Positions 5,494-64,000 of a DNA stretch of 64,000 nucleotides are shown here, one piece after another. This DNA comes from Artemia franciscana. Lineage: Eukaryota; Arthropoda; Branchiopoda; Anostraca; Artemiidae. A program made the translations under genes and the position numbers. The notes under the pieces were generated by a model. That model searched no databases. It saw only the letters and a list, made by a program, of their open reading frames with translations, and was not told the DNA's origin. Where the stretch lies: contig NC_088883.1 in assembly GCF_032884065.1 (NCBI RefSeq), positions 21,529,393 through 21,593,392 on the forward strand. Reading direction: 5' to 3'. Each line of letters opens with the position of its first letter. The first letter of the stretch is position 1.

Positions 5494-5810
5494 GTTAGCT
5501 TCTTTCAACTTAGATTAAGACAATACAAAGAGAAGTGGCAAAATAAATGGAAAACATATAATTTGGGCTATATATTTGCACATTAGGGGTGGGTTAAAGT
5601 ATAGTGGGTCTGCATGCATAATGTGTTAGGTAAAATTATTCTTCATATTATGAAGTAAGAATTGTTTTCTAACTTAACTCTGCCCAAATACTTTACCCCC
5701 ACCCCAGCCCCTAATGTTTAAATGTATAGCCAGAATTATATGTTTCCTATATAATCAGTCACTTTTCTTTGTCTTGTCTCACGCTAAGCTGAAAGAAACT
5801 AACAAAAAAA
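5494..5810 (+). mobile_element. Palindromic MITE, copy 2
   Basis: The clearest copy, about 315 bp. The left arm starts TTAGCTTCTTTCAACTTAG and the right arm ends CTAAGCTGAAAGAAACTAA. The arms are inverted repeats of about 120 bp through the GGCTATATATTTGCAC block. There is no ORF, so it is non-autonomous. The superfamily is unknown because no target-site duplication is clear. Confidence 0.7.
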
Positions 5811-5814
5811 AACA

Positions 5815-7362
5815 ACCCTTTTCATATACGGAATAATTTCTGTTCGTTTTAAGTTTTCATGTCGCTCCTTACTTGCAGTTAAGAAAATTGCTTTTTTTTA
5901 TTTAATTTCTGAACGTTTTTGAATAAATGCACGTTTTGATTTTGGCTCACTGCACATGAATAGTTAAGGCGAAATTTACATATTATATTTGTTTTGGCTA
6001 AATGGTTTTCTCATAGTTTTGATCTGACGACTTTGATAAAAAAGAGGTGGGGGAGGAGGCCTAGTTGCCCTCCCATTTTTGGCTAAATAAAACTGCAACT
6101 AGTACTTTTTTACGAATGTTTTTATTAGTAATAAATATCCTTAACTTACAAATTAACATACGTAACGAACTTCTATATTCGTATATTTTTATAACGTATA
6201 TGAGAGGTTCACCCCCTCATCAATACCTCGCTCTTTACAGTAAAGCTTGAATTTTGTCCCAATTCCTTAAGAATAACCCTTGAATCACAAAGGCCATAGA
6301 ATAAATTGTTGATGTTACTAAAAATACTTTAGCGTAAAGAGTAAGGTATTGTGGAGGAGACGAACCCCCTAACATACGTAATATTTGCTGTTCGTTTGAA
6401 TTTTTAATGCTGCTCCTTAATTCCATTTGAAAAAACTTTTTTTATTTATTTTCTAATTGTTTTTTTTTTAATATTGCTAGAAAATCCTGTGCCCCCTTCA
6501 CGGAAATTCTCTTCCCTCATGATAAACTCCTCCATGGAAAGACCCTCCACGCAACCCCCTTCCCCTGACCCACCCCCACCCCAACGCGAAAAAGTCCCCC
6601 TGAAAACGTCTATACACTACCGAATAACCCTTACTATTTGTAGACAATGGTCAAAGCTTGTATCTTGCAGCCCCTCCCCCGGGGACTCTGGGGAATTAAC
6701 TAATTCCAAAAAACATAGTTATTAGGTTTTTAGACTATGCTGAACAAAAAGGCCATCTCAAATTTTTGACCCTGTGTTTTGGGAAAAAGAGCGTGGGAGG
6801 GGGCCTAGGTGCCCTCCAATTTCTTTGGTCACTTAAAAAGGGCACTAGAACTTCTAATTCCGTTAGAATAAGCCCTCTCACGACATTCTGGGACCACTGG
6901 GTCGACACAATCACCACTGGAAAAAAAACAACAAATAAACACGCATCCGTGATCTGTCTTCTGGCAGAAAATACAAAATTCCACATTTTTGTAGATAGGA
7001 ACTTAAAACTTCTACAGTAAGGTTCTCTGATACTCTGAATCTGATGATGTGATTTTCGTTAAGATTCTATGACTTTTAGGGGGATTCTCCCCCTAATTTC
7101 CGAAATAATGTTATTTTAAGCTGAAATAAGGCTATTTTATGATTTTTAGGGGATGTTTTCCCTTATTTCTAAAATAAGGCAAATTTTCTCAGGCTCGTAA
7201 CTTTTGATTGGTACTTTATGAAACTTCATGAAACTTATATATTTAAAATCAGCATTAAAATGTGTTTATTTTGATGTAACTATTGGTGTCAAAATTCCGT
7301 TTTTACAGTTTCGGTTACTATTGAGCCGGGTTGCTCCGTACTACAGTTCGTTACCACGAACT
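5815..7362 (-). mobile_element. Hairpin element, copy 1 (minus)
   Basis: Reverse-complement relative of 24915-26640. Its start on the minus strand is the 9-bp hairpin ACAGTTCGT-GGTA-ACGAACTGT (7339-7362). It runs through the core module near 6740-6870 and an inner imperfect palindrome (~6190-6390). It ends at the CGCTCCTTACTTGCAG arm near 5820, where the outer half of the end palindrome is missing. Non-coding: ORFs here are not conserved in the other copies. Known relatives lie at 50446, 62040 and 63605. Confidence 0.7.
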
Positions 7363-7439
7363 GTTTGAAAGGTCTTATGTGATATAGGCCCTACTGCTCA
7401 AGTTGTTCATTCATAGGCGCATTATCGACCCTGTTTTTT

Positions 7440-13539: not shown

Positions 13540-16500
13540 TTATTTATTTATTTTTCCCAGGGGCAGTTCATTTCTAAGGGGTCGTCGCATAAACCTTGGA
13601 GGGGGCTCATTTGATTAGAAATAGGAAGTTCTATTGCCCTTTTTAAGAGTCAAAAGTAACTGGAGGACAACTAGCCCCCCCCCCCCCTTCCTACGCCCTT
13701 TTCCTCCAAATAAATCTGATACAAATTTTGAGATAGCCATTTTGTTAAAAATACATCAAAAATCATATAAAAAACTCCTGTGTCGAAACAACCCCCCAGG
13801 ACCCGGGGAGAGGCGTTGTAAGTTATTCCCCGCGGCATAGATGGTTCTTGGGGAAGGGATGCTCATATAAACTTCAGAAGGGGCTAATATGATTGTAAAT
13901 TGAAAGCCCTAATTCGCCTTTTAAGAATCAAAATAGATCGGAGGGAATAGCCCCCTCGCTCTTCGCGCCCTTTTTCCTCAAACCCATCCGACAAGAACTT
14001 TTAGCATGCCATTTAAAAAAAAGAATAGTTCGAAGATCATGTAACGAAAATTCGGGACAGGCGTTGTAAGAATTGCCCTCGGGGCATATATGGTTGTTAT
14101 GGAAGGGATGCACATACAAGCTGCAGAGATGGCTCATTTTATTGGAAATTGAAAGCTCTAGTTCAGTTTTTAAGAATCAAAAGAGATCGAAGGGCAAATA
14201 GTCCTCCTCCACGCCCCTTTTACCTCAAATACATTCGATAAAAATTTTGAGATAGCCGTTTTGCTAAAAGATACTTCAAAGTTCAGACAAAAAACTCTGG
14301 CGTCGACAAAACCCCCCTGGGCCCGGGGCCAGGCGTTGTAATTTATGCCCTGGGGGTATATATGGCTCTTATGAAAGGGATACTCGTATAAACCTTAGAC
14401 ACGACTTATTTAATTGGAAGTTGAAAGTTCTAGTTCACTTTTTAAGAGTCAAAAGAGATCCGGTGGCAACTAGCCCCCACGCCTTTTTCCCCCAAACCCT
14501 TCCGATAATAATTTTGAGATTACTCTTTTGTTGAAAATAGTTCAAAGGTCAGGCAAAAAAAAAAAAAAAAAAAAAAAAATCGGGTTTCAATACAATCCCC
14601 AGGACCAGATGTTGTAAATTATACCTCGGGGTATATATAATTCTTATGGAAGGGATGCTCGTATAAACTTCAAAGAGGGCTCATTTGAACGAAAATTTAA
14701 AATTTTAACTCACTGGTTATGAATCAAGAGAGATCGAAGGGCAATTAATCCCCCATTCCCTTTTTCCCCCAACCCATCCGATACAAATTTTGAAATAGTG
14801 ATTTTTTTTTAAATAGTTCAAAAGTCAGATAACAAAACTTCGGTGTTGAGACACCCACCCAGGACCGGGTGAAGGCGTTGTAAGTTATTTCCATGTGGCA
14901 TATATATTTTTTTTATGAGAGGGTTGCTCGTGTAAACTTCAGAGAGGGCTCATTTGATTTTAAACTGAAAGTTCTAGTTTACTTTTTTAGAGTCAATTAA
15001 GATCCGAGGACAAAAAGCCTCTCCACGCCCTTTTCACCCAAGCATCCATCTGATAAAAATGCTGAGATGGTTGTATTGTTAAAAATAGTTCAAAGGTCAG
15101 ATTACGTTGTCGACACAACCCTCTAGGGCCCCGGGGCAGGCATTGTAAGTTATGCTCAGAGGTCACAAATGGTTCTTATGGAAGGGATTCTCGTCTAAAC
15201 CTCAGAGAGAGCTCATTTAAACGGAAATTGTAAGTTCTAGTTCAATTTTCAAGGGTATAAAGAGATTCTAGGGCAACTAGCCCCCAGCCATTTCCCCTCA
15301 AACCTAACCGATAAAAATTTTGAGATGGCAATTTTTTAAAAATAGTTGAAACATCAGATAACAAAAACTTCTGGATTGACACTACCCTCATAGAGTCTGG
15401 GGGCAAATGTTTTAAGTTATACCCCAGAGGCGTATAAGGTTTTTACGTGAGGGGTGGTCGTATAAGCTTCAAAGGTGGCTCAATTGATTAGAAATAGAAA
15501 GTTCTAGTTCACTTTTTAAGAGTTAAAAAGATATCCGGGCGCAACTAGCCCCCTAGCCTTTTTCCCAAATCCATCCAATGCAAATTTTGACATTTTTTTA
15601 AAATAGTTCAACATCAGATAACAGAAACTCCGGGCTCGACATAACCTCCCAGAGCCCAGGGGTAAGTGTTTTAAGGTATTTCCTGGTTTTTAAGTAAGGA
15701 ATGGTCGCATAAACTTCGAAGGTGGTTCATTTGATTGGAAATTGAAAGTTCTAGCCACCTTTTAAGGGTCAAAAGTTGACAGAGGCCATTTACGCCTCCC
15801 CCCTGAAACAAACACCTTCTTTTCCTAAATTATATCAAATGAAATATTTTGAAATATCCAGTTTGTTTGAAATAGTCCGACGATAAGATAACAAAATTTC
15901 GTTGTCAGCATACCCCCTCCCCCCTAGAGCTAGGGGAAGGGTTATACCTTATGCTGCAGGGGCATATAAGTTTTTTATGGAATGGGTGTTCGTATAAACG
16001 TTGGAAGGAACACAAATGATTAGAAATTGATAATTTTAGTTCACCTTTTAAGAGTCAAAAGTGATTCAATGGCGACTGGCCCTCCCATCCTCCTAACCCT
16101 CTCTCCAAATGCGTCCATTCTAAGTTTTTTTACAACTATTACTTTCAAAATAGTCCAAAGATAATATAACAAAACTCCAGGGATACAATAGCCCCCCCCC
16201 CCAGAATCCGCAGGCAAGTGTTGTAAGATATTTCGTGGGGCAAATAAGGTTTTTATTCAAGAGATGGTCGCATAAACTTTAGAGGGGGCTTATTCAATTG
16301 TAAATAAAAGTTTCTAGTGCCTTTTTCAAGAGTCAAAAGTTATCAGAGGGCAACTAACCCTCCTCCTCGGGGTCCTTTTTCCCAAAAGTATCCAATCAAA
16401 GTTTTGATATAGCAATTTTGTTCAAAACAGTTCAAAGATCAACAATACTTTCGGGGTCGAGACATCTTCCCAGAGCCAGAGGACAAGCATTGTAAGCTAT

Positions 16501-20559: not shown

Positions 20560-21769
20560 GCATGTTTCATAATGGTCCATGGGAACACAATCCGTATTCA
20601 GATCTATACCTCACGATTCTAATGATTGCCCATGAGCTTTGTTGATGGTGATTGCTAATCGACCATTCCCTGTGTCGCCGTCGTCATTTATATATCCCCC
20701 TGTGCCCCTGGCGTTCCCGTTGTAGTTGTGTCCCTGTGTCCCGGTCGTCATTTATATTCCCTGTGTCCCGGTCGTCATTTGTGTCCCAGTGTCCCAGTCT
20801 GTGATTTTTCTTTGAGTGTCCCGGGCGTCATTTATATTCCTTGTGTCCCGGTGTCCCGGTCGTCATTTGTGTCCCGGTCTGTATGTACATTCGTTTTTGA
20901 ATTGGTCTTTTTTTTACTATAAAAAATAACTATAAAAAAACTATATTTTTATGGTTTTTAGTTTTTTACCTTTTTTTAGTTTTTTTAGTTATACCTTATG
21001 ATTCTAATGATTGCCCTTGAGCTTTGTTGGTGGTGATTACTAATCGAATATTCCCTGTGTCCCCGTCGTCATTTATATATCCCCCTGTGCCTCACGGTGT
21101 CCCCGTTGTGGTTGTGTCCCTGTGTCTCGGTCGTCATTTATATTCCCTGTGTCCCGGTCGTCATTTGTATCCTGGTGTCCCGGTCTGTATATACATTCTT
21201 TTTTTAAATGGTATATGATGAAATAAAGTTTTGTATTTTTCCCCTTTTTTCTTTTAGTTTTTTTTGGTTTTTACTTTTTTTAGTTTTTTTAGTTTTTTTC
21301 TTTTTTCTTTTTTTTTATTTTTATTTTTTTTAGTTTTGTTTTTCTCCTTTATTTTTAATTTTTTTTCCTTTTTTATTTTTTTTTATTTTTTATTTTTTTA
21401 GCTTTTTTAGTTTTTTATTAGTTGTTAGTTTTTTTTCTTTTTAGTTTTTTTGTAGTTTTTACCTTTTTTTTAGTTTTTTTAGTTTTTTTTTTACTTATGT
21501 CCTGGTCGTCATTTATACTCCCTGTGTCCCGGTCGTCATTTGTGTCCCGGTGCTTTGTTGATGGTGATTGCTAATCGAACATTCCTTGTGTCCCGGTCGC
21601 TTTCTCTTTGAGTGTCCCGGTCGTCGTTTATATTCCCTATGTGGCGGTGTCCCGGTCGTCATTTGTGTCCCGATGTCCCGGTCTGTAATTTCGTCAGTCT
21701 AAAACATGACGTCAGTCGACAAACAAACATGACGTCACTCGACAGACACACACACACACACAGACAACT

Positions 21770-24480: not shown

Positions 24481-24914
24481 AGTGGAAACACTTACCTAAC
24501 CTGAAGTCTCACTGAATTTCCACAGTCAGTTCAAAAGGATATAGCCAGTCAAATAGAGTATCTCCCTTGCGTTCTATTATGCGGCCAAGTTGTCACTGCC
24601 ACGGGTAAATCCATGCAAACATGAAAGTCTCGAGCGATAACGGAGATTATAAGAAAACCATTGATTCTAATTGATTTTTAACCCTGTTCATTAGATTTTG
24701 GAGGAAATTAATGATTTCTCAATATACACAGTAAAAATGCATTGTCTTCCTTTCAACTTTGGCCAAAAAGGAAAACTCAATCATCATTTACAAATTCCGG
24801 TATCTGATGCCATCGATTTAGGAATTAGCCCATTTTTTTCGTGATCCTAGGCAATACTGAACCTGCACGAATTTTCACTTTGAAGAATTGCAACTCTGGA
24901 CAGTCGTTGTTTAT
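24481..24914. other. Unassigned spacer
   Basis: The LINE tail probably ends in this stretch. No ORF is supported. Confidence 0.35.
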
Positions 24915-26640
24915 CAAACAGTTCGTGGTAACGAACTGTAGTAAGGAGCGACCCGGCTCAATAGTAACCAAAACTCTAAAAAATGAAATTTTGATACCAA
25001 TAGCTACATCAAAAGAATCGCATTTTAATGCTGGTTTTAAATATACAAGTTTCATCAAGTTTAGTCTTACCCATCAAAAGTTACGAGCCTGAGAAAATTT
25101 GCGTTATTTTAGAAAATAGGGGGAAACGCCCCCTAAAAGTCATAGAATCTTAACGAAAATCACAACATCAGATTCAGCGTATCAGAGAACCCTACTGTAG
25201 AAGTTTCGTGCTCCTATCTACAAAAATGTGGAATTTTGCATTTTTTGCCAGAAGGCAGATCACGGATGCGTGTTTATTTGTTTTTTTGTTTTTTTTTTGT
25301 TTTTTTTTCCAGGGGTGATCGTATCGACCCAGTTGTCCTAGAATGTTGCAAGAGGGCTCATTCTAACGGAAATGAAAAGTTTTAGTGCCCTTTTTAAGTG
25401 ACCAAAAAAATTGGAGGGCACCTAGGCCCCATCCCACGCTAATTATTTTCCCAAAGTCAACGGATCAAAATTCTGAGATAGCCATTTTATTCAGCGTAGT
25501 CGAAAAACCTTATAACTATGTCTTTGGGGACGACCTTACTCCCCCACAGTCCCCGTGGGAGGGGCAACAAGTTACAAACTTTGACCTGTGCTTACATATA
25601 GTAATGGTTATTGGGAAGTATACAGGCGTTTTCAGGAGGATTTTTTTGGTTTGGGGGAGGGGTTGAGAAGAGGGGGATATGCTGGGGGAACTTTCCTTAG
25701 AGAATTTGTAATGGGAGAAGAAAATTTCCATGAAGGGAGAGCAGGATATAGGCTACTAGCATTATTTAAAAAAAAAACAATTAAAAAATAAAAGTGAAAA
25801 AGCTTTTTCAGCTGGAAGTAAGGAACAGCAATAAAACTTAAAACAAACAGAAATTATTACCCATATGAGGGGCTCACCTCCTTCTAATACCCCGCTCTTT
25901 ACGCTAAAGTATTTTCAGTAATTTCAACTACTTATTCTACGGCTTTTGTGATTCAGGGGGTCATTCTTAATGAATTGGGATAAAATTTAAGCTTTAGTGT
26001 AAAGAGCGAGGTACTGACGATGGGGCGAATCCCGTCATATATGTAATAAAAACATGAAAATACAAAAGTTCTTTACGTAAGCTAATTTATAAGTTACGTA
26101 AATCTTTTACCAGTAAAAAGATTCGTAAAAAATTAAAAGTTCTAGTTGCCTTTTTAATTAACCAAAAAATCGGGGGGCAACTAGGTTTCATCCCCCGCTC
26201 TTTTTTTCTCAAAATCATTCGATCAAAATTATGAGAAAGCCATTAAGCCAAAAAAAAAATATGCAAATTTCGTTTTGATTATTCCTCTGCGGAGAGCCAA
26301 AATCAAAACATGCATTGATTCAAAAACGTTCAGAAATTAAATAAAAAAAACAAGTTTTTTTAACTGAAAGTAAGGAGCGACATTAAAACTTAAAACGCAC
26401 AGAAATTACTTCGTATATGAAAGAGGCTGCTTCCTCATCAACGCCCCGCTCTTTACGCTAATATTTTTTACTGTTTTAAAAAGAAGAATTGAGAGAAAGA
26501 GTCAAACTTTAGCGTAAAGAGCGGGGCGTTGATGAGGAAGCAGCCTCTTTCACACACGAAGTAATTTCTGTGCGTTTTAAGTTTTAATGTCGCTCCTTAC
26601 TTTCAGTTAAAAAAACTTGTTTTTTTTATTTAATATGTAT
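24915..26640 (+). mobile_element. Hairpin element, copy 2 (plus, most complete)
   Basis: Begins with the 9-bp hairpin ACAGTTCGT-GGTA-ACGAACTGT (24919-24940) and then AGTAAGGAGCGACCCGGCTC. It continues through TTACGAGCCTGAGAAAATTT and a core module at ~25390-25510. An inner palindrome region is at ~25860-26050 and another core at ~26150-26250. It ends in a near-perfect long palindrome (26336-26637) and TTGTTTTTTTTATTTAAT. There is no conserved ORF. The superfamily is not recognised. The combination of one short terminal hairpin and one large end palindrome is not a standard TIR layout. Confidence 0.75.
26336..26637. repeat. Near-perfect palindrome, ~127-bp arms
   Basis: Left arm ~26336-26463, right arm ~26510-26637, separated by ~45 nt of spacer. 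I find about two differences across the arms (TATA against CACA near GAAAGAGGCTGC). Each arm holds GCGTAAAGAGCGGGGCGTTG and AAGTAAGGAGCGACATTAAA or its complement. A partly conserved version is at 62048-62196. Confidence 0.85.
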
Positions 26641-27709
26641 AATGCAACCAATTGTTTTAAACGATTCGACTGACGTCATGTTTTCGAATGATGATTACAG
26701 ACCGGGACATCGGGACACAAATGACGACCGGGACACCTGCACATAGGGAAAATAAATGACGACCGGGACACTCAAAGAGAAAGCGACCAGGACACAAGGA
26801 AGGTTCGATTAGCAATCACCATCAACAAAGCACCGGGACACAAATGACGACCGGGACACAGGGAGTATAAATGACGACCAGGACACAAGTAAAAAAAAAA
26901 CTAAAAAAACTTAAAAAAAAGGTAAAAACTACAAAAAAACTAAAAAGAAAAAAAAACTAAAAACTAATAAAAAAAATAAAAAAGCTAAAAAACTAAAAAA
27001 ACTAAAAAATAAAAAAAATAAAAAAAGGAAAAAAAATGAAAAATAAAGGAGAGAAACAAAACTAAAAAAATAAAAATATAAAAAACTAAAAAGAAAAAAA
27101 AACTAAAAAACAAAAAAACTAAAAAAAGTAAAAACCAAAAAAAAATTAAAAAGAAAAAAAGGGGAAAAATACAAAATTTATTTCATCATATACCATTTCA
27201 AAAACGAATGTATATACAGGCCGGGACACCGGGATACAAATGACGACCGGGACACGGGGAATATAAATGACGACCGGGACAGGAACACTAGTACAACGGG
27301 GACGCCATTGGGCCCAGGGGGATATATAAATGACGAAGAGGACACAGGGAATATTCCATTAGCAGTCACCACCAACAAAGCTCAAGGGCAATCATTAGAA
27401 TCATGAGGTATAACTAAAAAAACTAAAAAAAGGTAAAAAACTAAAAACTATAAAAAAGACCAATTCAAAAACGAATGTATATACAGACCGGGACACCGGG
27501 ACACAAATGACGATCGGGACACCGGGACACAAGGAATATAAATGACGCCCGGGACACTCAAAGAGAAATCACAGACTGGGACACTGGGACAAAAATGACG
27601 ACCAGGACACAGAAAATATAAATTACGACCGGGACACAGGGACACAACTACAACGGGGACGCCGGGGGCACAGGGGGATGTATAAATGACGACGGCGACA
27701 CAGGGAATG

Positions 27710-27905
27710 GTCGATTAGCAATCACCATCAACAAAGCTCAAGGGCAATCATTAAAATCATGAGGTATAGATCTGAATACGGATTGTTTTCCCATGGACCA
27801 TTATATGGTGCATGTTCAAGAGTCGGTAATTCTTACAATCTATTTATATGCACAGACAATGGGACAGCGAAGAATGTTGTATATTCGCAAGTTTTACGTA
27901 GTTAA
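27710..27905 (+). pseudogene. Helicase C-terminal tail fragment in B
   Basis: Corresponds to 32515-32717 of the Helitron helicase. It covers the ITINKAQGQSLE motif VI region, the FSHGPLY block and the VVYSQVLRS end. Indels and substitutions disrupt it, for example TCATGAGG in place of a GTGTGG-type codon run. Equivalent tails are at 34806-35003 and, on the minus strand, 20571-20672. Confidence 0.75.
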
Positions 27906-27985: not shown

Positions 27986-28141
27986 ATATATATATAAATA
28001 AGTTGTCTGTCTGTGTGTCTGTCAGGTGTCGTCATGTTTCTGTGTCGACTGACGTCATGAAGTTCGTTGTCGTCATTTTTGCTATGACGGTGACGTCATT
28101 AAAGATATTTAAGACATATATGTTCACGTAGAGATCTATTA

Positions 28142-29248
28142 ATGTTTAAGTTTAAAATGACTGATGAACTTACAAAGGCAAAAGCCGATGAAGATGCTCA
28201 AAGAGTCTATGCCAAAAAACTTGCTGCTGATAGAGAAAGTCAGAAAAGAAAGCGTGCCGAGGAATCAAAAGAACAGCAAGGAAACAGGCTTGAGGCTGAT
28301 AGAGAAAGAAAGAACAGAAAGCGTGCCGAGGAACTACCAGAGCAACGCGAAAGCAGACTTGCTGCTAAAAGAGAAAGTGAAAAAAGAAGGCGTGCCGAGG
28401 AATCACAAAAACAGCAAGAAATCAGGCTTGCTGCTGATAGAGAAAGTAAGAAAAGAAAGCGTGCCGAGGGATCACAAGAACAGCAAGAAATCAGGCTTGC
28501 TGCTGATAGAGAAAGTAAGAAAAGAAAGCGTGCCGAGGAATCAGAGCAACCTGAAAGTTATCGCCTGGCATTCAGGTACAGCCCAGTCGATGATTATAGC
28601 TTGAGTAGATGTGTTCAAATCGGGACAATGTCTAAAATTTGTCCCTATTGCAAGGCCTTGAAATTCAATGGTGAAACAATGGGAATGTGTTGCGCCTCAG
28701 GAAAAGTTAAACTTCCTCTATTGGCTGCACCACCAGAGCCATTGAAGACTTTCCTTACTGGAACTACGTCAGAATCTAAGCGTTTTTTGTCACAAATCAG
28801 AAAATACAACTCATGTTTCCAAATGACGTCGTTTGGAGCCCAAATCGAAAATCTAGATCAATTTATGTCTACTTTCAAAGTAAAAGGGCAAATTTATCAT
28901 AGAGCAGGGTCCCTTCTACCATTCTCAGGTGAGAATCATAAATTTTTACAATTGTACTTCATCAGTGATAAAAATTCTGAATTGAATGCACGTTGCGAAA
29001 TTTCTCCCAACGTTGAAAGGACAATCGTTTCCCAATTGCAATATCTTTTCCACGAAAATAATAATTTAGTGCGTCTGTTCAAAACAGCCATCGATTTGAT
29101 GCCTACTGATACGCATAAAATTGTTATTTCCGCTGACAAAACGCCTCCTGGCCAACATGTGCGTAGATACAATGCTCCAACTATCGACGAAGTGGCAATC
29201 GTTATGGTCGGTGATCAGTTTTTACCTCGATATATTATTCTTCATTAG
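28142..29248 (+). CDS. RepHel segment 1: basic repeats, Cys cluster, Helitron_like_N
   Basis: Open stretch of 368 codons from the first plausible ATG (28142; a second in-frame ATG lies six codons later, MFKFKMTDEL). Residues ~25-135 are five imperfect ~23-residue repeats of the RLAADRESKKRKRAEE type, highly charged and probably helical, perhaps DNA-binding. Residues ~166-185 hold CPYCKALKFNGE then CC, a likely zinc site typical of Helitron N-termini. YHRAGSLLPF and FLQLYFISD follow, conserved Helitron_like_N blocks. The stretch stops at TAG 29246-29248, but homology continues in the same frame right after it, so this is a premature stop. Confidence 0.85.
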   Translation: MFKFKMTDELTKAKADEDAQRVYAKKLAADRESQKRKRAEESKEQQGNRLEADRERKNRKRAEELPEQRESRLAAKRESEKRRRAEESQKQQEIRLAADRESKKRKRAEGSQEQQEIRLAADRESKKRKRAEESEQPESYRLAFRYSPVDDYSLSRCVQIGTMSKICPYCKALKFNGETMGMCCASGKVKLPLLAAPPEPLKTFLTGTTSESKRFLSQIRKYNSCFQMTSFGAQIENLDQFMSTFKVKGQIYHRAGSLLPFSGENHKFLQLYFISDKNSELNARCEISPNVERTIVSQLQYLFHENNNLVRLFKTAIDLMPTDTHKIVISADKTPPGQHVRRYNAPTIDEVAIVMVGDQFLPRYIILH

Positions 29249-30358
29249 CGAAACGCTCAGTTGTTAAGAATTGCTGAAACTCATCGATGCTACGATGCCC
29301 TACAATATCCTATCATTTTTTGGGATGGAGCCGACGGCTATCACTTTAATATTAAATTGATGAATCCAGCCACTAACAAAGAAATTAATAAGAAATGCAG
29401 TGCAATGCATTATTATTCCTATAGACTAATGATTCGGCAGGATGAAGAAAATTATATTTTAAAATGCCGTGAATTGTTTCACCAATTTCTCGTTGATATG
29501 TATGCTAAAATTGAATCAGAACGTTTGCTATATATCCGCCTGAATCAGACCAAGCTCCGCTCTGAACAATACATTCATTTGCGAGATGCAGTTATAAATG
29601 ACGGTAATACCACAAACGTTGGAAGATTAAAAATTTTACCTTCGTCATATGCTGGCAGTCCCCGTCATATGCATGAATATGCTCAAGATGCTATTGCGTA
29701 TGTTCGTCTCTATGGTCGTCCAGATTTATTTATTGCATTTACATGTAATCAATCTTGGGACGAGGTACTGCAGCTTTTACTTCAAGGACAATCGGCGGTT
29801 CATAGGCATGACATTACGGCCCGTGTCTTCCGGCAAAAGTTGAAATCACTGATAAACTACATAGTAAAACTTGAAGTGTTTGGGTCAGTGCGATGCTGGA
29901 TGTACTCAGTGGAATGGCAAAAACGAGGTTTGCCACACGCACATATACTAATCTGGCTACATAAAAAAATTACTTCGAACGAAATTGATGATGTGATTTC
30001 CGCTGAAATACCTGATAAAAATGTCGATAAGGGGTTACATGATATTATTGTAAAAAATATGATACATGGACCTTGCGGTGCACTGAACGAAAATTCACCA
30101 TGCATGGCCAAAGGAAGGTGCACAAAGCAATATCCTCGACTTTTAGTATCCAACACAATTACTGGCAATGATGGTTACCCACAATATAGAAGAAGATCTA
30201 CTAAAGATGGCGGTAAAACAGCAATAATAAAGAAGCGTAACGGTACCACCATCGAAGTAGATAACCAGTGGGTTGTTCCATGTTCCCCATTATTATCAAG
30301 AACATTTAATGCACACATAAACGTTGAATACTGTAACTCCGTAAAGGCAATCAAATAA
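29249..30358 (+). CDS. RepHel segment 2: HUH nuclease
   Basis: Same frame as segment 1, open after the TAG (first ATG 29261). Landmarks in order: YDALQYPIIFWDGADGYHF, RLLYIRLNQTKLR, LPSSYAGSPRHMHEYAQDA, FIAFTCNQSWDEV, then WQKRGLPHAHILIWL. The two His of PHAH (29936-29944) bind the catalytic metal in this family. Downstream is the Cys-containing HGPCGALN...PCMAKGRCTKQYPR region and GYPQYRRR, then the NAHINVEYCNSVKAIK run. It ends at TAA 30356, exactly where related proteins read KYICKYVNKG. The first of the two tyrosines is therefore replaced by a stop; the second is retained downstream. Confidence 0.87.
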   Translation, partial: RNAQLLRIAETHRCYDALQYPIIFWDGADGYHFNIKLMNPATNKEINKKCSAMHYYSYRLMIRQDEENYILKCRELFHQFLVDMYAKIESERLLYIRLNQTKLRSEQYIHLRDAVINDGNTTNVGRLKILPSSYAGSPRHMHEYAQDAIAYVRLYGRPDLFIAFTCNQSWDEVLQLLLQGQSAVHRHDITARVFRQKLKSLINYIVKLEVFGSVRCWMYSVEWQKRGLPHAHILIWLHKKITSNEIDDVISAEIPDKNVDKGLHDIIVKNMIHGPCGALNENSPCMAKGRCTKQYPRLLVSNTITGNDGYPQYRRRSTKDGGKTAIIKKRNGTTIEVDNQWVVPCSPLLSRTFNAHINVEYCNSVKAIK

Positions 30359-30638
30359 ATATGTAAATATGTCAACAAAGGCAGTGACATGGCAGTGTTT
30401 GGCTTGCAGCCCGAAATCAAAGATTTCGACGAAATCATACAATATCAGGCTGGAAGATACATAAGCAGTAATGAAGCTGTTTGGCGAATTCTTTCATTTC
30501 CGATACATGAACGTAGTCCAGCTGTTGTTCACTTAGCGGTACATTTACAGAATGGTCAACGTGTTTATTTCTCGGAAACCAACGTGCAACAAAGAGCCCT
30601 GAATCCACCGGATACAAAATTAACAGCTTTTTTTCGCT
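30359..30638 (+). CDS. RepHel segment 3: second tyrosine and linker
   Basis: Continues in the same frame after the TAA: ICKYVNKGSDMAVFGL, then DEIIQYQAGRYISSNEAVWR and the PPDTKLTAFFR block. The Tyr in KYVNKG is the second catalytic tyrosine position of the family. Homology leaves this frame near 30636 and resumes in frame 1 (CKNDSFAKKLLYTEVPSYY), consistent with loss of one T in CGCTTTGC. The remaining open codons to 30787 are out of frame and meaningless. Confidence 0.8.
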
Positions 30639-30639
30639 T

Positions 30640-32160
30640 TGCAAAAATGATTCTTTTGCAAAAAAACTGCTGTATACTGAAGTGCCTTCGTATTACACGT
30701 GGAATACTAAAGATAAAGTATTTGAACGTCGAAAAGAGGGTAAGTCAGTCGACGGCCAACCTACCATCTTCAAAGATACCACGATAGGAAGACTCTACAC
30801 CGTTCACCCCAATCAACATGAATGCTTCTTTCTACGCCTGCTTTTGGTGAATGTACCCGGTCCGACATCCTTTGAGTATTTGAGAACTGTAAACGGTACT
30901 ATACATGACACTTACCGTAGTGCATGCCAAGCTCTGAATTTATTGGAGAATGACCAACACTGGGATAACTGCATCAATGACGCGTGCGAAACGTCAACTC
31001 CAAGTCAAATTCGTGCATTGTTTGGCATCATTTTAACAACTTGCTCTCCATCAGCTCCTACAGAGCTATGGGAAAAATATAAGTCAAAAATGTCCGAAGA
31101 TATACTCCATCGAAAACAGTTAGAGACGTCAGACATGACTTTTGATTTTACATCAGAAATTTATAACTACACTTTAGTTATTATAGAAGATTTGTGCGTA
31201 CGTATGGCAAACAAACCTCTTCAGGATTTGGGAATGCCTTCACCTACCCGTATCGCTGCTGTTTCGACATGTGTAGAATTGGATCGTGAACAAAGTTACA
31301 GTACGAGTGATCTATTGTCGTATGTACAAAATAACATTTCCAAGTTAACGTCGGAACAAAAAGACATTTATGATACGATAATGCATTGTGTCGATAACAA
31401 CGTTGGAGAAATTTTCTTTTTGGATGCGCCAGGAGGTACTGAAAAAACGTTTGTGATAAAACTGATTCTGGCATCAATTCAATCAAAAAATGATATAGCG
31501 TTGGCAATTGCGTCGTCCGGAATAGCCGCAACATTGCTGCCTGGTGGAAGAACTGCTCGTCCCGCTTTGAAATTGCCTCTGAATTTGCATTCTACAGAAA
31601 CTCCCACGTGCAATATTTCCAAATCATCTGGGATGGGTAAAGTATTGCAGCAATGCAAACTTATTATTTGGGATGAGTGCACAATGGCACACAAAAAATC
31701 GCTCGAGGCTCTGGATCAATGCTTGAAAGATTTGAGAGGGAAGTCGAAACCCTTTGGCAGTACATTAATATTGCTTGCGGGAGATTTCAAGCAAACATTA
31801 CCTATAATACCTAGATCAACTCCTGCAGACGAAAGGAATGCTTGCCTGAAAAATTCTAATTTATGGGCACACGTAAAAATATTAAAATTAACTACAAATA
31901 TGCGTGTCCGATTGCAAAACGATGACTCTGGTCAAACATTTTCAGATCAATTGCTGGCAATTGGAAACAGAAAGCTCCCAGTAGACTCAATTTCAGGACC
32001 TATACAACTACCTGCTGATTTCTGTAATTTAGTGACGTCCAAAAATGAATTGATTGAAAAAGTTTTTCCGAATATTCTAAAAAGTTAAAAAAATAATAAA
32101 TGGCTAAGTGAAAGAGCGATTCTCGCACCCAAAAATATAGACGTCCACAAAAATCAACAA
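30640..32160 (+). CDS. RepHel segment 4: Pif1-like helicase core
   Basis: Frame-1 reading, open to TAA 32086 (first ATG 30682), with homology beyond the stop (KWLSERAILAPKNIDV) to ~32160. Blocks: GRLYTVHPNQHECFFLRLLL, LTSEQKDIYDTIMH, then Walker A as APGGTEKTF. The family consensus there is GGTGKT, so Gly is replaced by Glu (codon 31441-31443). Walker B is LIIWDECTMAHK, the motif around LLAGDFKQTLPIIPR is intact, and LTTNMRVRLQND follows. The P-loop change should impair ATP binding even without the stops. Confidence 0.86.
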
Positions 32161-32167
32161 TATTGTT

Positions 32168-32717
32168 TTGACCAAGATTCGAGACCAGGCAGTCCTTTAC
32201 AAGTCAGTCGACACAGTTTTGGAACCAAATGAAGCGGTTAATTATCCATCTGAATTTTTAAATTCCATAGATCTTTCAGGGTTTCCACCACACTTGCTAC
32301 AACTAAAAATAGGCGTACCAATAATACTTTTAAGAAATATCAACCCACCAAAGCTTTGCAATGGCACGCGACTTGCCGTAAAAAAAAACAATGGAAAACC
32401 TAATAGAGGCCACAATCTTGACAGGGCCTTTTGAGGGTGAGGCTGTTCTTATTCCTTGCATTCCCATGATTCCAACGGATCTGCCTTTTCAATTTAAAAT
32501 ATTGTAATTCTCAATTCGATTAGCATTTGCAATCACCATTAACAAAGCTCAAGGTCAATCATTAGAAAAATGTGGTATAGATCTTAATACTGATTGTTTT
32601 TCCCATGGACAATTGTACGTTGCATGTTCGAGGGTCGGTAAACCCGACAATCTATTTATATGCAGCGACAATTGGACAGCGAAGAATGTTGTATATTCGC
32701 AAGTTTTACGCAGTTAA
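32168..32717 (+). CDS. RepHel segment 5: helicase C-terminus
   Basis: Frame 2 from ~32165: VLYKSVDTVLEPNEAVNYPS, then GVPIILLRNINPPKLCNGTR and LAVKK. At the A run near 32385 homology shifts frame to MENLIEATILTGPFEGEAVL. A TAA at 32505-32507 sits where relatives have a Gln or similar residue, followed by SIRLAFAITINKAQGQSLE (helicase motif VI area), [18 protein letters not shown] and a natural end VVYSQVLRS at TAA 32715-32717. Fragments of this end are repeated in elements A, B and C. Confidence 0.83.
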
Positions 32718-32744
32718 TTTGTATTGTATTTATCTATCTATATA

Positions 32745-33246
32745 TCTATATAAAAACGAGTTGTGTGTATGCATGTTTGTTTGTTTGTAAAAAGAGCGTT
32801 TGCATATGACGTCATTATTAGTAAATACGGCTTTGTATATGCACAGACAATGGGAAAGCCAAGAATGTTGTATATTCGCAATTTTTACGTAGTTTAACTC
32901 CTGCAGACGAAATGAATGCTTGCCTGAAAAATTCTAATTTATGGGCACACGTAAAAATATTAAAATTAACTACAAATATGCGTGTCCGATTGCAAAACGA
33001 TGACTCTGGTCAAACATTTTCAGATCAATTGCTGGCAATTGGAAACGGAAAGCTCCCAGTAGTGGAAAAGCCAAGAATGTTGTATATTCGCAATTTTTAC
33101 GTAGTTTGAAACACATATATAAATCTATCTATATTCACAGGTGGGACACAGGGACACAACTACAATGGCGCGTAACTAATATGGCGCGTAACGACTAGCG
33201 CGCGCGGGGGGGCTTGGGGGGCGCGAAGCGCCACCCCAACAGCTAG
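32745..33246 (+). mobile_element. Short chimeric Helitron derivative (502 bp)
   Basis: A second Helitron 5' end, TCTATATAAAAACGAGTTGT, lies at 32745 with A before it. It shares the CTAG end at 33243-33246 with T after it. Inside, a 169-bp piece (32896-33064) repeats helicase codons of 31816-31984 almost exactly (CCTGCAGACGAAATGAATGC against ...GAAAGGAATGC). Two copies of a helicase-end fragment (AATGTTGTATATTCGCAA; 32865 and 33078) flank that piece. Confidence 0.7.
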
Positions 33247-33249
33247 TAT

Positions 33250-33334
<85 letters not shown>

Positions 33335-33462
33335 CAGGTGGGACATAAGGACATAACTACCATTGCGCGTAACGACTTACGCGCGTGGGGGGGATTGGGG
33401 GGCACGAAGCGCCCCCCTCAGCTAGGTGTTGGGGTGGCGCGAAGCGCCACCCCAACAGCTAG
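33247..33462 (+). mobile_element. (TA)n plus extra Helitron 3' terminus
   Basis: A TA array (33258-33330), then TATTCACAGGTGGGACA and two successive hairpin-CTAG ends. The first is imperfect (CTAG 33422-33425). The second is a perfect GGTGGCGC-GAA-GCGCCACC hairpin with CTAG at 33459-33462. It may be the displaced 3' end of element B or the outer 3' end of the main Helitron. Confidence 0.7.
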
Positions 33463-33975
33463 TATTTTAATAATAAAAACTTTTATTTTATCTCTGTCAC
33501 GTTTGTCTTTACCAAAAATGCTAATTGGAATGAAGTTCGTCCAGTTTCAGTCCAGGTCATGAAGCTGATTCTTCTCTTAAGAGATAAGCTTGCTCAGTCA
33601 GAGAAAGTAACTAGTTTAATAACTGAAACTAACAGTTTGATATATATTGAGTCATCTGTAACCCACATATACATACAAGTTTAAAGGTGGGCAATAAAAG
33701 AATATTATTCAAAACACAATAAAATACGAAAAACCGGTATTTATTATTTTTGCTTTGTAAAAGAACACCTACTAGGTTGCTAGCTACCGCCGCAACACGG
33801 TTTTTACTTTTGAACACCCAACATCCCTACCCTGGGCTATCTCTTAGCTCGGGGATCAAGTTAAAACTCTCAGATATATTCGGGGGGACGTAGGAAAGGG
33901 TTTTAAAGAGACTGAGAGTTTTATGTTTGGGGGGGAAGGTATTGTAATATTTTTTTTCTGAAATATTTTTTTTTT
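33463..33975 (+). repeat. Helitron flank repeat, copy 1
   Basis: About 510 bp starting TATTTTAATAATAA, immediately after CTAG. Repeated nearly identically at 35576-36098 and, in part, at 35250-35375. It ends in T-rich TTTTTTTGAAAA. Not coding: the ORF at 33629-33817 (-) is repeated at 35742-35930 but has no gene features. Confidence 0.8.
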
Positions 33976-35249
<1,274 letters not shown>

Positions 35250-35384
35250 TATTTTAATATTAAGAACTTTTATTTTATCTCTGTCACGTTTGTCTTTACC
35301 AAAAATGCTACTTGGAATGAAGTTGGTCCAGTTTCAGTCCAGGTCATGAAGCTGATTCTTCTTTTAAGAAATAAGTAGTTAAAA

Positions 35385-35447
<63 letters not shown>

Positions 35448-35575
35448 CAGGTGGGACATAGGGTCACAACTACAATGGCGCGTAACGACTTACGCGCGCG
35501 GGAGGGCTTGGGTGGCGCGAAGCGCCCCCACCAACTAGGTGTTGGGGTGGCGCGAAGCGCCACCCCAACAGCTAG
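35250..35575 (+). repeat. Tandem duplication of flank plus Helitron 3' end
   Basis: 35250-35375 repeats the start of the flank. It then jumps to TAGTTAAAAACACATATATA, (TA)n (35388-35444), the TATTCACAGG block and another doubled hairpin end with CTAG 35572-35575. The ~326-bp unit is nearly identical to its left neighbour. Confidence 0.8.
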
Positions 35576-50189: not shown

Positions 50190-52580
50190 TAATGCACTGT
50201 GCCCGGTTTGCTCTTTACTTAGGCGGTGCTCTGATACTACGTAGGCCTTTGATATACTCCTTAAGACAGAGTCCATCAAAAGGATGGACACAAATACTGG
50301 GCTTGTCACCATACATACAACGCAACCTGGCTTGACACCTAATTCAATATAAATACAGCTACTAATGTCATTACCCACTCCGACCGCATCAACGTTATTA
50401 TCGTATATATCACAGAAAAATTAATATATTGATTTGGTATCAAGCTGTTCGTGGTAACGAAATGTTCAAACTGTTCGTTACTGTTCAAACTTGAAACGAC
50501 TCGGCTCAGACGTAACCGAAACGCTAAAAATTGAAATTTCGATCTACATAGATATATAAAAGGAATCGACTTTTTATGTCAATTCCAAATATATAAGATT
50601 TAGAAAGTTTTGTTTGTCCCATCTAAAGTTATGAACCTGAGAATATTTGCCTGATTTTCTAAAAAGGGGCAAACACCCCAAAAAAGTCAAAGAATCCTTT
50701 TGAAAGTCGCGCCACCAGATTCAGCGTATTGGAGATTCCCACTGTATAGTTTTCAAGCTCTCATGCGCCAAAGTAGGGAATTTGGTATGTTTTACCAGAA
50801 CAAAGATTATTGATATATTTTTCTTGTATTTTGTTGTTTGTTTTTTCCAGTGGTGATCAAACCAACAGTCCTTGAATATCAGAAGAATGCTGATTCTATG
50901 CAAAATTAAAAGATCTGTCGCCAATTTTAAGCGACGAAAAAGATGGAAGGGCAACTAGCCCCCTTCCCACGTGCATTTTTTCTCCAAAGTAATCAGATCA
51001 AAATTTTGAGGTTGCAATTTTGTTCAGCATAATGGAGAAGTCCGATAACTATGCGTTTGGGAATAATGTGACCCTCCCCCGCAAGTCCTTGGGGAAAGGC
51101 CTGTAAGCTGTGAAATTTGCCCATAGTATTATTTGCATAGTATATGTTATTGGGAAGTACAAAGGCACTTCTCACGGAGGAGACTTTTCGCTTTGGGGGG
51201 GGGGGGATTTCAACCAAGTAAACTTTTGATGGAAATTTTAAACTTTAGAATTTCTCAGAATTCGTATACGAAACTCTTTTCATGTGTCTTATTTTCTCTT
51301 CGCCGGCTCAATTTCACATGTGGCGATTTTTCAGCGTAATATTCAAGGGAAATTCCCATTGCGGTTGGAACTGTCCGGAGGGATTTTTCATGAGGGAGGG
51401 GGCTGAAGAAAATCTTTGATAGGTGTTTTCATAGAGGATGGAAATGTTCCAGGAGATTTTAACACAGATATTGCGTTGAAAGAACTCTCCATGGAGCTTT
51501 TCTTGTCGAGGGAACTGAAGTTTGAATAGAGGAGGAACTGGAACTACTTGTATTATTTGAAACATGGTCAGAAATTAAATAGAAAACAGATTTTTATAAC
51601 TGAAAGTAAGGTTTTCAGAGTTCAGATTTTCAGAGTTTTTTTTCAAAAATAAATATAAATTGAAATCACAATAGTCTTATTCCCTCTTGAAAGGCTCTAA
51701 GGCCAAGAAACAGTATTAAAACTGAAAACAAACAGAAATTGTTCTTTTTATGAATATTTAAAGCGTTGCTTCGTCCTAACTACCTTGCTCCTTATGCTAA
51801 AGTTTGATTTCATGTCCTAATTCTCTAAGAACGACTCCTGGAACGCAAGGGCTGTTTAATTAAAATCAGACGATTTTTTAAATGGATAACAAACTTCAGC
51901 GCGTAGAGTGAGTTACTTAGGAGGGAGCAGCCCCCTTATAAACGGAATAATTTCTGTTTGTTTTAAGTTTAAATGTCGCTCTTTACTTTCAACTCGTTTT
52001 TTCTTTAATACCATACAAGAATAAAGCTCATCTATCAGCTAAACTAAACGCTTGCTTTTAATCTATAAAACTGAGGACTAAGGGGTCTGATGACTCAGGC
52101 ACATCTCTAACTCTACATAATCTCTAAGTCTAAAAAGTATCGTCTTGCTAAGTAGTTTGCTTCCGACAGAAACTAAGCTAATGCCTCTATAATTACCAAT
52201 GTCGCTCTTAGCACCCTTTTTATAGAGGGGTCTAGTTGAAGTTTTCCTAAAATCGCTAGCTACTTCCTTTTTACAAGAATTATATTCGTAATCTTCAGCA
52301 ATTTATATCTAACTTAGCAACCATCATATCTAAAAACTCCTTTCCTGTAATTTCAACTAATTGTGCATATTTTTTTTTAGTCGTTTTAGTGCTGTCATTA
52401 ATTAGTCCTCGCAAAATAAGATATGTTTTCGCTTCCAAAGCGTCTTTAAAAATTTCTTTCTTGATATCTTTTCATGTAATTTTATCACAATTTAACAGAT
52501 TTTAAAATGTTTTGCCCTTCTCTCTTAAACTTTTCACGTATCAATTATTGTGGCCCCGCTACTATCTTTATCTAGAACAA
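50190..52580 (-). pseudogene. LINE relic split by a hairpin element (minus)
   Basis: Right part (~52580-52013): SDFRKTSTRPLYKKGAKSDI, GNYRGISLVSVGSKLLSKTI, LFRLRD, then degenerate ELYSCMVLK. Left part (~50445-50190): LDTKSIY, FFCDIYDNNVDAVGVGND, ISSCIYIELGVKPGC and ILLMDSVLRSISKA. The two parts are adjacent in related LINE proteins (compare SLYAILYKWIKVISAI at ~48700), and 50446-52012 between them is a hairpin element. No YADD box is seen left of 50190, so the relic is also truncated. Confidence 0.75.
50446..52012 (+). mobile_element. Hairpin element, copy 3, inserted in a LINE
   Basis: Starts CTGTTCGTGGTAACGAAATG (hairpin decayed on the right arm), ACTCGGCTCAGACGTAACCG, ATGAACCTGAGAATATTTGC, core at ~50930-51080, GAACGACTCC-type middle. 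It ends TGTCGCTCTTTACTTTCAAC plus a T run. ~1.57 kb, diverged from copy 2 but colinear. Its edges coincide with the LINE break, giving the best estimate of the element's ends. Confidence 0.72.
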
Positions 52581-61896: not shown

Positions 61897-62039
61897 ATAC
61901 AGTTGAGAAGGGGGGCTGTTCAACTGGATGCAAAGTCAATTTAGTCCCTTCTTTCGATATTATTTTAAAGTTGTTGTTTTTTCAACGCTGAGGAATAGCC
62001 TTTGGTCATGTGATAACTGATTGCGTTCTTGTTTGAACA

Positions 62040-63604
62040 TTACTCTGTATATGAAAGAAGCTGTTCCTTCTTCAACGCCTTGCTCTCTGCGCTAAAGTTT
62101 GACTCTTTCTCTCAACTCTGCTTTTTAAAACAGTAAAAACTTTAGCGTAAAGAGCAGGGCGTTGAAAAGGGAACAGCCCCTTTCATATACAGGATAATTT
62201 CTGTTCGATTTAAATTTTAATGTCACTCCTTACTTTCAGCTAGAAAAAAAATTGTTTTTCTTATTTAATTTCTGACCGTTTTTTAGTTAATTCATGTTCT
62301 GATTTCGGCTCTCCGCAGATGAATAATTAAAGCGAAATTTAAGTATTTATTTAGTTGGCTAAGTGGCTTTTCCGTAGTTCTGATCGAATGATTATGAGAA
62401 AAAAGAGGAAGGAGGAGGCCCAGTTGCCCTCCAATTTTTCGGGTACTTAATAAGGCAACTAGAACATTTTGTTTTTTACAAATGTTTTTATTAGTAAAAG
62501 ATATAAGTAACTTACAAATTAGCTTAAGTAACAAACTTCTATAGTCGTATGTTTTTATTACTTATATGAGAGGGTGCGCCTATTCGTCAATACCTTGCTC
62601 TTTATGCTAAAGCTTAAATTTTGTCCCCTGAATCAAAAAGGCCGTAGAATAAATAGTTGAAATTACTGAAAATACTTTAGCGAGTGAGGGTCAGGTACTA
62701 AGAGGAGGTGAACCCATCATGTGCGTAATATTTTCTGTTCGTTTTAAGTTTTAATGCTACTCCTTACTTTCAGTTGAAAAAACTTTTTCACATTTATTTT
62801 TTCTTTGTTTTTTTTAATTAGTGCTAGAAGATGCTGCGCCCCCTTCATGTAAATCTTCTTCCTCCATGACAAATTCCTCCATGGAAAGTTTTCCCCACAT
62901 AACCCCCTCTTCTAAACACCTCCTCCCAACCAAAAAATCCCCCTGAAAACATCTGTACACTTCCAATAACCATTAATGCATACAAACACTGGTCAAAGTT
63001 TGTAACTTGCAGCCCCTCCCATGGGGACTTCGGGGGAGTAAGTCGTCCCCAAAGACATAGTTATAAGGTTTTTCGACTATGTTGAATAAAATGGTTATCT
63101 CAGAATTTTGATCCGACGACTTTGGGAAAAGAATGTGCATGGGAGGGGGCCTAGCTGCCCTCCTAGCTGCCCTCCAATTTTTTGGTCACTTAAAAATGGC
63201 ACTAGAAATTTTCATTTCCGTTTAAATGAGCCCTCTAGAAAAGTTCTAGGACCACTGGGTCGATACGATCACCCCTGGGGAAAAAAAACAACAAATAAAC
63301 ACGCATGCGTGATTTGTCTTCAGGCAAAAAAATAAGAAATTCCACATTTTTGTACATAGGAGCTTGGAACTTGTAAGTAAGGGTTCTCTGATACGCTGAA
63401 TCTGATGGTGTGATTTTTATTAAGATTGTATGACTTTTAGGGGGGGGGGTTTCTCCCTATTTTCTAAAATAGGGCAAATTTTCTTAGGCTCGTGAATTTT
63501 GATGGGTAAAACTAAATTTGATGAAACTCATATATTTAAAATCAGCATTAAAATGCAATTCTTTTGATGGAACTATTGGTATCAAAATTCCGTTTTTTAG
63601 AGTT
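62040..63604 (-). mobile_element. Hairpin element, copy 4 (minus)
   Basis: Reverse orientation, colinear with copies 1 and 2: the end palindrome remnant (62048-62098 with 62141-62196), GCCCAGTTGCCCTCCAATTT core (~62420), inner palindrome (~62560-62720), second core (~63090-63240), AAAATTCACGAGCCTAAGAA (as complement, ~63484). It stops at CGGTTACTAT (63604) without the 9-bp hairpin. Confidence 0.7.
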
Positions 63605-64000
63605 TCGGTTACTATCTTAGTTATACACTAAAGCTTAAATTTTGTCCCAATTCCTTAAGAATGACCTCTGGGACACAAAGGCCCTAGAATAAATAGTTGA
63701 AATAACTAAAAATACTTTAGCGTAAAGATTGAGGTATAACGAGGAGTTATACCCTTCATATGCGTAATAATTTTTGTTGGTTTTAAGTTTTAATACTGAT
63801 CCTTACTTTCAGTAGAAAAAACTTTTCATATTTATTTTTTTATTGTTTTTTCAAATAATACTAAAAAATCCTGCACCCCCTTCATTGAAATTCTCTTCCC
63901 CCAAGAGAATTTCATCCATGGAAATATCCTCCCATGTACCCCCCCCCTCAACTCCCCTCCCTAAACCAAAAAAATCCCCCTGAAAACGTCTGTACACTTC
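63605..64000 (-). repeat. Partial second copy of hairpin element, to window edge
   Basis: CACTAAAGCTTAAATTTTGT and onward repeats 62600-62990 (inner palindrome, then CCTGCACCCCCTTCA and CCCCTGAAAACGTCTGTACA). The tandem junction replaces the terminal hairpin of copy 4. It continues beyond the window. Confidence 0.7.

What the first reader, a model, noticed from the sequence alone, without database searches (positions are those of the whole stretch)
24915..26640. Unnamed ~1.6 kb non-coding mobile element with a short hairpin at one end and a large palindrome at the other
Four colinear copies exist in both orientations (5815-7362, 24915-26640, 50446-52012, 62040-63604). Copies that keep the end begin with ACAGTTCGT-GGTA-ACGAACTGT; the other end is a palindrome. 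There is no ORF and no simple TIR pair. The layout recalls Helentron-type non-autonomous elements (terminal hairpin, inner inverted repeats) but does not match a class I can name.
Basis: partly seen in the sequence, partly recalled or inferred. Interest (0 to 1): 0.75.

Follow-up and report, generated by a model that had tools for sequence, protein, structure and literature searches.

The report
Abundant non-coding rolling-circle-type jumping element
The repeat is a very abundant non-coding jumping element of the Helitron/Helentron kind in what is most likely the brine shrimp genome, with unusual ends and a set of copies that appear to show its end hairpin acting as a stop signal for copying.

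Summary
Confirmed and extended. The focal copy is 24914-26633, minus strand (1720 bp, no ORF). Read 5'->3' it starts A^TTAAATA.., has a near-perfect palindrome of about 300 bp at the 5' end, a 13-bp subterminal inverted repeat (AGTAAGGAGCGAC) at both ends, and ends hairpin-TTGA. The exact hairpin occurs 29,141 times in the 1.27-Gb genome, probably Artemia franciscana. Empty sites show clean insertion after A, usually before T, without duplication. Best reading: a non-autonomous Helitron-like (rolling-circle) element. Its layout is Helentron/HINE-like, but target, spacing and end motifs fit no named class, so I file it as a variant. Strongest support is a read-through composite (element + 3' end + about 320 bp of other sequence + 5'-truncated second element). 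Its inner junction occurs exactly 557 times with a damaged inner hairpin and 58 times with an intact one; 12 of 12 sampled junctions continue as that composite. In a 14-copy tree the damaged ones form one younger clade. The arms of the 5' palindrome co-vary within copies. No autonomous partner was found.

The parts
24914..26633 (-). Complete element, 1720 bp, 5' end at 26633, 3' end at 24914
   Evidence: Sharp ends shared with copies elsewhere
24914..24917 (-). 3' terminus TTGA
   Evidence: TTGA after the hairpin in 22 of 24 distinct hairpins (read) and in 35 of 40 further ones
24918..24939 (-). 3' hairpin ACAGTTCGT-TACC-ACGAACTGT
   Evidence: DNA fold -8.6 kcal/mol for the 26-mer with TTGA; 29,141 exact copies genome-wide
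24940..24952 (-). 3' subterminal inverted repeat GTCGCTCCTTACT
26589..26601 (-). 5' subterminal inverted repeat AGTAAGGAGCGAC, 32 nt inside the 5' end
26369..26381 (+). Further copy of the subterminal repeat, inside the inner palindrome arm
26337..26633 (-). 5' terminal palindrome; outer arm 26509-26633, inner arm 26337-26461, loop of 47 nt
   Evidence: present in all 13 copies that met both end patterns
25786..25910 (+). Diverged third copy of the 5' arm (76%), inverted relative to the element
26130..26244 (-). Internal module, first copy
   Evidence: 79% identical to the second copy
25370..25486 (-). Internal module, second copy
5810..7368 (+). Second copy, lacking the outer 5' part, with an intact 3' hairpin
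50444..51991 (-). Third, degenerate copy
62032..63615 (+). Fourth copy, lacking the 3' hairpin
63621..64000 (+). Fragment of a further copy, cut off by the window end

Best explanation
It is a non-autonomous Helitron-like (rolling-circle) transposon family. An unseen RepHel enzyme is thought to nick the 5' end next to a host A (the subTIRs and the palindrome are likely recognition sites), peel off one strand, stop at the 3' hairpin-TTGA, and join the strand or its circle after an A, usually before a T, without duplicating the target. Shown: the ends, the empty sites, the lack of a target duplication beyond a possible AT, composites that end at the outermost hairpin, and the spread of one read-through composite. 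Inferred: the RepHel enzyme, strand transfer, and the hairpin as stop signal.
For: Empty sites: the joined flanks of L011 match five undisturbed paralogues at ATA^TTC. L024 (minus strand) is nested in a sister copy, and undisturbed sisters L027 and L021 read AAGTAA^TCAA. For L018, with its 5' end read as TTACATT, one of three empty sites is identical across the junction (GTTAGA^TAGACTG), and the other two differ at the next two bases. The 5' flank is A in 13 of 13 copies that met both end patterns (read, with L014 and L018 re-read). The 3' flank is T in 20 of 22 TTGA ends. Composites: L022 and L028, at different loci, share element + 3' end + about 320 bp + 5'-truncated element. The exact junction occurs 557 times with the damaged inner hairpin and 58 times with the intact one. 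12 of 12 sampled junctions match the L028 composite tail; in 11 of 12 the intact outer hairpin was matched by the pattern, and what follows it differs among the 11. The stem mutation cuts the predicted hairpin from -8.6 to -4.4 kcal/mol. The damaged ones form one clade (support 0.999) that differs by 2.1% within, against 4.4% among intact ones. Helraiser reads through more often when its hairpin is removed (PMC4778049, passages).
Against: No autonomous partner was found, though not every candidate was read. The base after TTGA is not always T: of 40 further hairpins the fifth base is T 26, A 11, C 3. All six empty sites read for L017 have A where the filled site has T, so A^A targets or a changed base are possible. 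Of 7 joined flanks searched, 4 gave no spanning site; only 40 of 2503 candidates were scored. An A^T insertion without duplication cannot be told from a 2-bp AT duplication by sequence. The damaged-hairpin expansion is a single lineage, so drift may explain it; and intact-hairpin composites also spread (58 junctions), so bypass does not need the damage.
Confidence: 0.85

Rival explanations
1. It is a true HINE: a deletion derivative of an endonuclease-bearing Helentron.
For: SubTIRs and 3' hairpin; no target duplication.
Against: Target is A^T, not TT, and the subTIR spacing differs. The OTU family gives 2 matches about 11 kb apart on C6, which I read as one host gene; OTU is not a defining part of Helentrons, so this is weak. 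Endonuclease domains were not searched.
Confidence: 0.3
2. It is moved by the abundant canonical Helitron of this genome (L059 type, PF14214 + PIF1).
For: Same A^T target type as canonical Helitrons; very abundant RepHel genes: 7436 candidates, 150 scored; domains.
Against: The L059 element ends in a GC-rich hairpin and CTAGT (read), unlike hairpin-TTGA. In one search none of 30 Rep loci (about 1.5 kb each side) holds the first 8 letters of this family's hairpin or its subTIR.
Confidence: 0.2
3. It is a foldback or TIR DNA transposon that has lost one end.
For: Large palindrome at one end.
Against: The hairpin end and the palindrome end are unlike each other and both are present in 13 copies; no long duplication at empty sites.
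Confidence: 0.04

Closest known systems
Helentron / HINE / DINE-1 (PMC4067079, passages and section 11)
   Same: Non-coding, very abundant, 13-bp subTIRs (as in DINE-1), short 3' palindrome, no target duplication
   Different: A^T (sometimes perhaps A^A) instead of TT target; subTIR 32 and 26 nt from the ends; a 5' palindrome of about 300 bp; partner unknown
Canonical Helitron (Helitron1), e.g. Helraiser (PMC4778049, passages)
   Same: A^T target, 3' hairpin, read-through capture of flanking sequence
   Different: No 5'-TC, no CTRR-3'; hairpin 4 nt from the end instead of 11; has subTIRs
Proto-Helentron-Pi of Phytophthora (PMC4067079, section 11)
   Same: 5'-TT and insertion between A and T without duplication
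   Different: Ends in CTAG and encodes RepHel; here TTGA and no genes
Helitron2 / FoHeli (PMC5148889, passages)
   Same: Asymmetric terminal inverted repeats, terminal hairpins
   Different: Other target sites and end motifs; those encode RepHel

Membership tests
Helentron/HINE | SubTIRs of about 11-15 bp at both ends | tested here: met
   13-bp AGTAAGGAGCGAC / GTCGCTCCTTACT; exact 3' copy in 20 of 40 sampled ends
Helentron/HINE | Short palindrome near the 3' end | tested here: met
Helentron/HINE | SubTIR about 2-4 nt from the 5' end and 38-60 nt from the 3' end (mite HINEs) | tested here: not met
   32 and 26 nt here (positions; published values)
Helentron/HINE | Insertion in TT | tested here: not met
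   A^T at the empty sites of L011, L018 and L024; A^A possible at L017
Helentron/HINE | Autonomous partner with RepHel plus endonuclease | tested here: inconclusive
   None found; the PF14214 search is swamped by canonical Helitrons and only 150 of 7436 candidates were scored
Canonical Helitron | 5'-TC and CTRR-3' | tested here: not met
   5'-TTA(A/C), 3'-TTGA
Canonical Helitron | Insertion between A and T without duplication | tested here: met
   L011 five of five empty sites read; L024 nested; L018 one of three identical across the junction; exception: L017, A at +1 in six of six
Canonical Helitron | Hairpin 10-12 nt from the 3' end | tested here: not met
   Hairpin present, but 4 nt from the end
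Rolling-circle (Helitron-like) elements as a whole | 3' terminator bypass with transduction of downstream sequence | tested here: met
Rolling-circle (Helitron-like) elements as a whole | Mobilised by a RepHel (HUH + Pif1) protein | not testable with these tools
   No coding copy identified; needs a partner or an assay
Foldback / TIR transposon | Inverted repeats at both termini and a target duplication | tested here: not met
   (a 2-bp AT duplication cannot be excluded)

The most novel reading that the evidence does not exclude
A distinct lineage of Helitron-like termini (5'-TT, subTIRs 32 and 26 nt from the ends, hairpin-TTGA-3', A^T target), in which an old bypass composite with an intact inner hairpin spread modestly, and one descendant lineage whose inner hairpin had lost a stem base pair spread about ten times more. 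This would be a natural experiment on how rolling-circle transposons define their 3' end and how composites become mobile units. Alongside it, the 5' palindrome is kept matched by conversion or fold-back copying.
Probability: 0.35. Interest if true: 0.65.

Novelty: new variant of a known kind. Interest (0 to 1): 0.5.

Why it matters
The family mixes Helentron layout with the Helitron target, which bears on how the two groups diverged. Its hundreds of composite junctions in two hairpin states offer a genomic test of the idea that the 3' hairpin is a transposition terminator, an idea tested with the reconstructed Helraiser (PMC4778049, passages). The genome is one in which Helitrons are reported at 8.81% (PMC11492255, passages), though I could not tell whether that figure includes this family or that it is the same assembly version.

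Tried and rejected
Autonomous partner. PF14214: 150 of 7436 candidates scored; the one read in full (L059) is a canonical Helitron ending in CTAGT. Nine hairpins with a non-consensus interior: four were fetched (L060-L063) and a fifth, C1:561152, was already held as L016; four were not looked at. L060-L063 were listed for ORFs and a tblastn with the L059 protein against the held loci (L029-L058 left out) matched only L009, L107 and the window; of these four only L062 was scanned with Pfam. Six 5' ends with a different interior: four fetched, two not. L107 has a Rep-like ORF, but it belongs to a separate canonical Helitron derivative. OTU: 2 matches. A pattern for a swapped 3' interior: 0 matches. 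A partner that shares more of the interior is not excluded. Endonuclease families were not searched.

Rows dropped. Of 21 hairpin copies with at least 2.5 kb held upstream, 13 met both end patterns and were used as full copies (L012 counted under L005). L016 has a 5' end too but ends TCGA and fell out by the pattern. L024p was first counted, then dropped because it shares its palindrome with the nested L024m; one search repeats the arm test with 13 copies. L026 was dropped because its 5' match is not a real 5' end. The 40 hairpins are 40 of the 42 listed between C1:1276649 and C1:1729737; C1:1539026 and C1:1687074 were left out. Of 12 joined flanks printed 7 were sent; 3 gave spanning sites. 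A split match of the L011 flanks at C134:237221-237404 was not read.

A genome-wide count of 5' ends did not complete. The source locus of the captured sequence was not searched. Papers: end sequences as words, 0 papers; Artemia with Helitron, 5 papers; (10 of 176 listed, none holding the word Artemia) listed nothing that describes this family. Repbase and Dfam were not available.

Full report
What was checked. Self-comparison of the window recovers the four colinear copies in both orientations. The focal copy runs from 24914 to 26633 on the minus strand; it is 1720 bp long and its longest stop-to-stop frame is 96 aa. The exact 22-bp hairpin occurs 14,565 times on one strand and 14,576 on the other in the genome that holds the window (1,270,528,402 bases, 6468 contigs), against 0 for the reversed control.

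Host. Its size and the length of its contig C2 (67,337,973) fit the Artemia franciscana assembly in PMC11492255 (1.27 Gb, 6486 scaffolds, 21 chromosome-scale, longest scaffold 67,337,973; passages seen). The match is not perfect: C1 here is 71.5 Mb, and the contig count and total differ slightly. I treat brine shrimp as likely, not proven.

Anatomy, 5'->3'. (1) TTAAATAAAAAAAACAAG... preceded by a host A. (2) A palindrome of about 300 bp at the 5' end in all 13 copies that met both end patterns; arm identity by BLAST 88-100%, loop 36-47 nt; in the window copy the fold is -149.7 kcal/mol, z -29. (3) Subterminal repeat AGTAAGGAGCGAC, 32 nt from the 5' end, and its inverse 26 nt from the 3' end. 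(4) Two copies of an internal module and a diverged inverted third copy of the 5' arm, which suggests that the element is itself an old fusion of two units (inference). (5) 3' hairpin ACAGTTCGT-TACC-ACGAACTGT and TTGA.

Boundaries and target. Among 24 distinct hairpins first read, 22 are followed by TTGA, then T in 20 and A in 2. Among 40 further hairpins on C1 (40 of 42 listed in that stretch), TTGA follows in 35; the fifth base is T 26, A 11, C 3, G 0. The 5' flank is A in 13 of 13 (with the 5' ends of L014 and L018 re-read as TTACATT). Empty sites: a copy in L024 nested in a sister, with undisturbed sisters L027 and L021; L011 with five of five read at A^T, one of them with a 13-bp change 11 bp further on; L018 with three, one identical across the junction (GTTAGA^TAGACTG) and two that differ at the next two bases; L017 with six, all of which carry A where the filled site has T. 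Four of the 7 joined flanks searched gave no spanning site, with only 40 of 2503 candidates scored. So insertion is after A and usually, not always, before T. An insertion at A^T without duplication and a 2-bp AT duplication look the same in sequence.

Read-through composites. L022 (3025 bp) and L028 (2891 bp), at different loci, share an element whose own 3' end is followed by about 320-335 bp that no other full copy holds, and then by a 5'-truncated second element that ends in an intact hairpin; the two are 96.5% identical over L028 1599-2891. The inner hairpin has lost one stem pair, which lowers its predicted stability from -8.6 to -4.4 kcal/mol. The exact junction with the damaged hairpin occurs 298 + 259 = 557 times, and with the intact hairpin 23 + 35 = 58 times. 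These are junctions, not composites: some copies, like L022, hold two, 193 bp apart. The damaged hairpin + TTGA occurs 403 + 358 = 761 times in all, so 557 of 761 lie at this junction; the other 204 were not inspected. Six loci of each kind were fetched from the inner hairpin onward (only 30 bp upstream): all 12 match the composite tail, 91.9-94.8% to L028 for intact and 92.3-99.2% for damaged ones (one damaged locus aligned in two pieces). The intact outer hairpin was matched by the pattern in 11 of 12, not in L118; after its TTGA the next base is T in 10 and A in 1, and the flanks differ. In an alignment of these 12 tails with L022 and L028, intact ones differ from each other by 4.4% on average (15 pairs) and damaged ones by 2.1% (28 pairs); FastTree puts the 8 damaged ones in one clade with support 0.999. 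So the composite moves as one unit that ends at the outermost hairpin, the bypass most likely came before the damage, and a single damaged lineage expanded later. That it is about ten times commoner fits a stop signal that was disabled, but it is one lineage, and drift is not excluded; the intact composites show that bypass and spread do not need the damage.

Palindrome arms. Within a copy the two arms differ by 3.7% on average, against 11.3% and 10.3% between copies for the outer and inner arms; 0 of 20,000 permutations reach this, and 3 of 20,000 when shuffled within three subfamilies that I defined from arm motifs (13 copies, the A-rich first 28 nt left out; L022 and L028 are relatives, so the copies are not all independent). 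A copy's own other arm is the nearest of all arms in 13 of 26 cases, so homogenisation is partial. Conversion or fold-back copying is inferred.

Mechanism. The best reading is a non-autonomous rolling-circle element: nick at the 5' end beside A, strand displacement to the 3' hairpin, insertion at A^T. For Helraiser the hairpin is reported as a terminator; about 11.7% of events read through with it and at least 36% without it (PMC4778049, passages). No RepHel with these ends was found here, so the enzyme is inferred.

Comparison. HINE/DINE-1 elements have subTIRs, a 3' palindrome and TT targets (PMC4067079, passages, section 11). Helitron2 has asymmetric terminal inverted repeats and hairpins (PMC5148889, passages). 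The proto-Helentron of Phytophthora starts 5'-TT and inserts between A and T. This family shares single features with each and meets the full definition of none, hence 'new variant of a known kind'. I saw no report of it in the listings; Repbase and Dfam could not be searched.

I also tested the order of bypass and damage with a tree.

Noticed in passing
window 28124-32714: A copy of the abundant canonical Helitron, about 85-96% identical to the L059 protein over its main stretches, split over several reading frames.
   Followed up: partly
L059 1240-6303: Open RepHel frame of 1688 aa (Helitron_like_N, PIF1, Pif1_2B, STPRs) in an element that ends in a GC-rich hairpin and CTAGT; 7436 PF14214 candidates genome-wide, of which 150 were scored.
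   Followed up: partly
window 20569-21719, 26666-27738, 32530-35486: Repeats with units such as ACCGGGACAC, in part shared with the non-coding part of the canonical Helitron L059.
   Followed up: no
L062 about 2960-3200: By eye, a stretch resembling an ISXO2/Merlin-type transposase remnant (recalled motif); the Pfam scan of six frames did not report it, so this is an unverified lead.
   Followed up: no
window 9087-9157, 10691-10767, 11647-11815, 14123-14263, 16282-16425: Short stretches matching this family, several of them the internal module, possibly other families that share it.
   Followed up: no
L022 1491-1878 (element coordinates): A 193-bp tandem duplication of the 3' end including the damaged hairpin; pairs of junctions spaced 193 bp also appear elsewhere in the genome.
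   Followed up: partly
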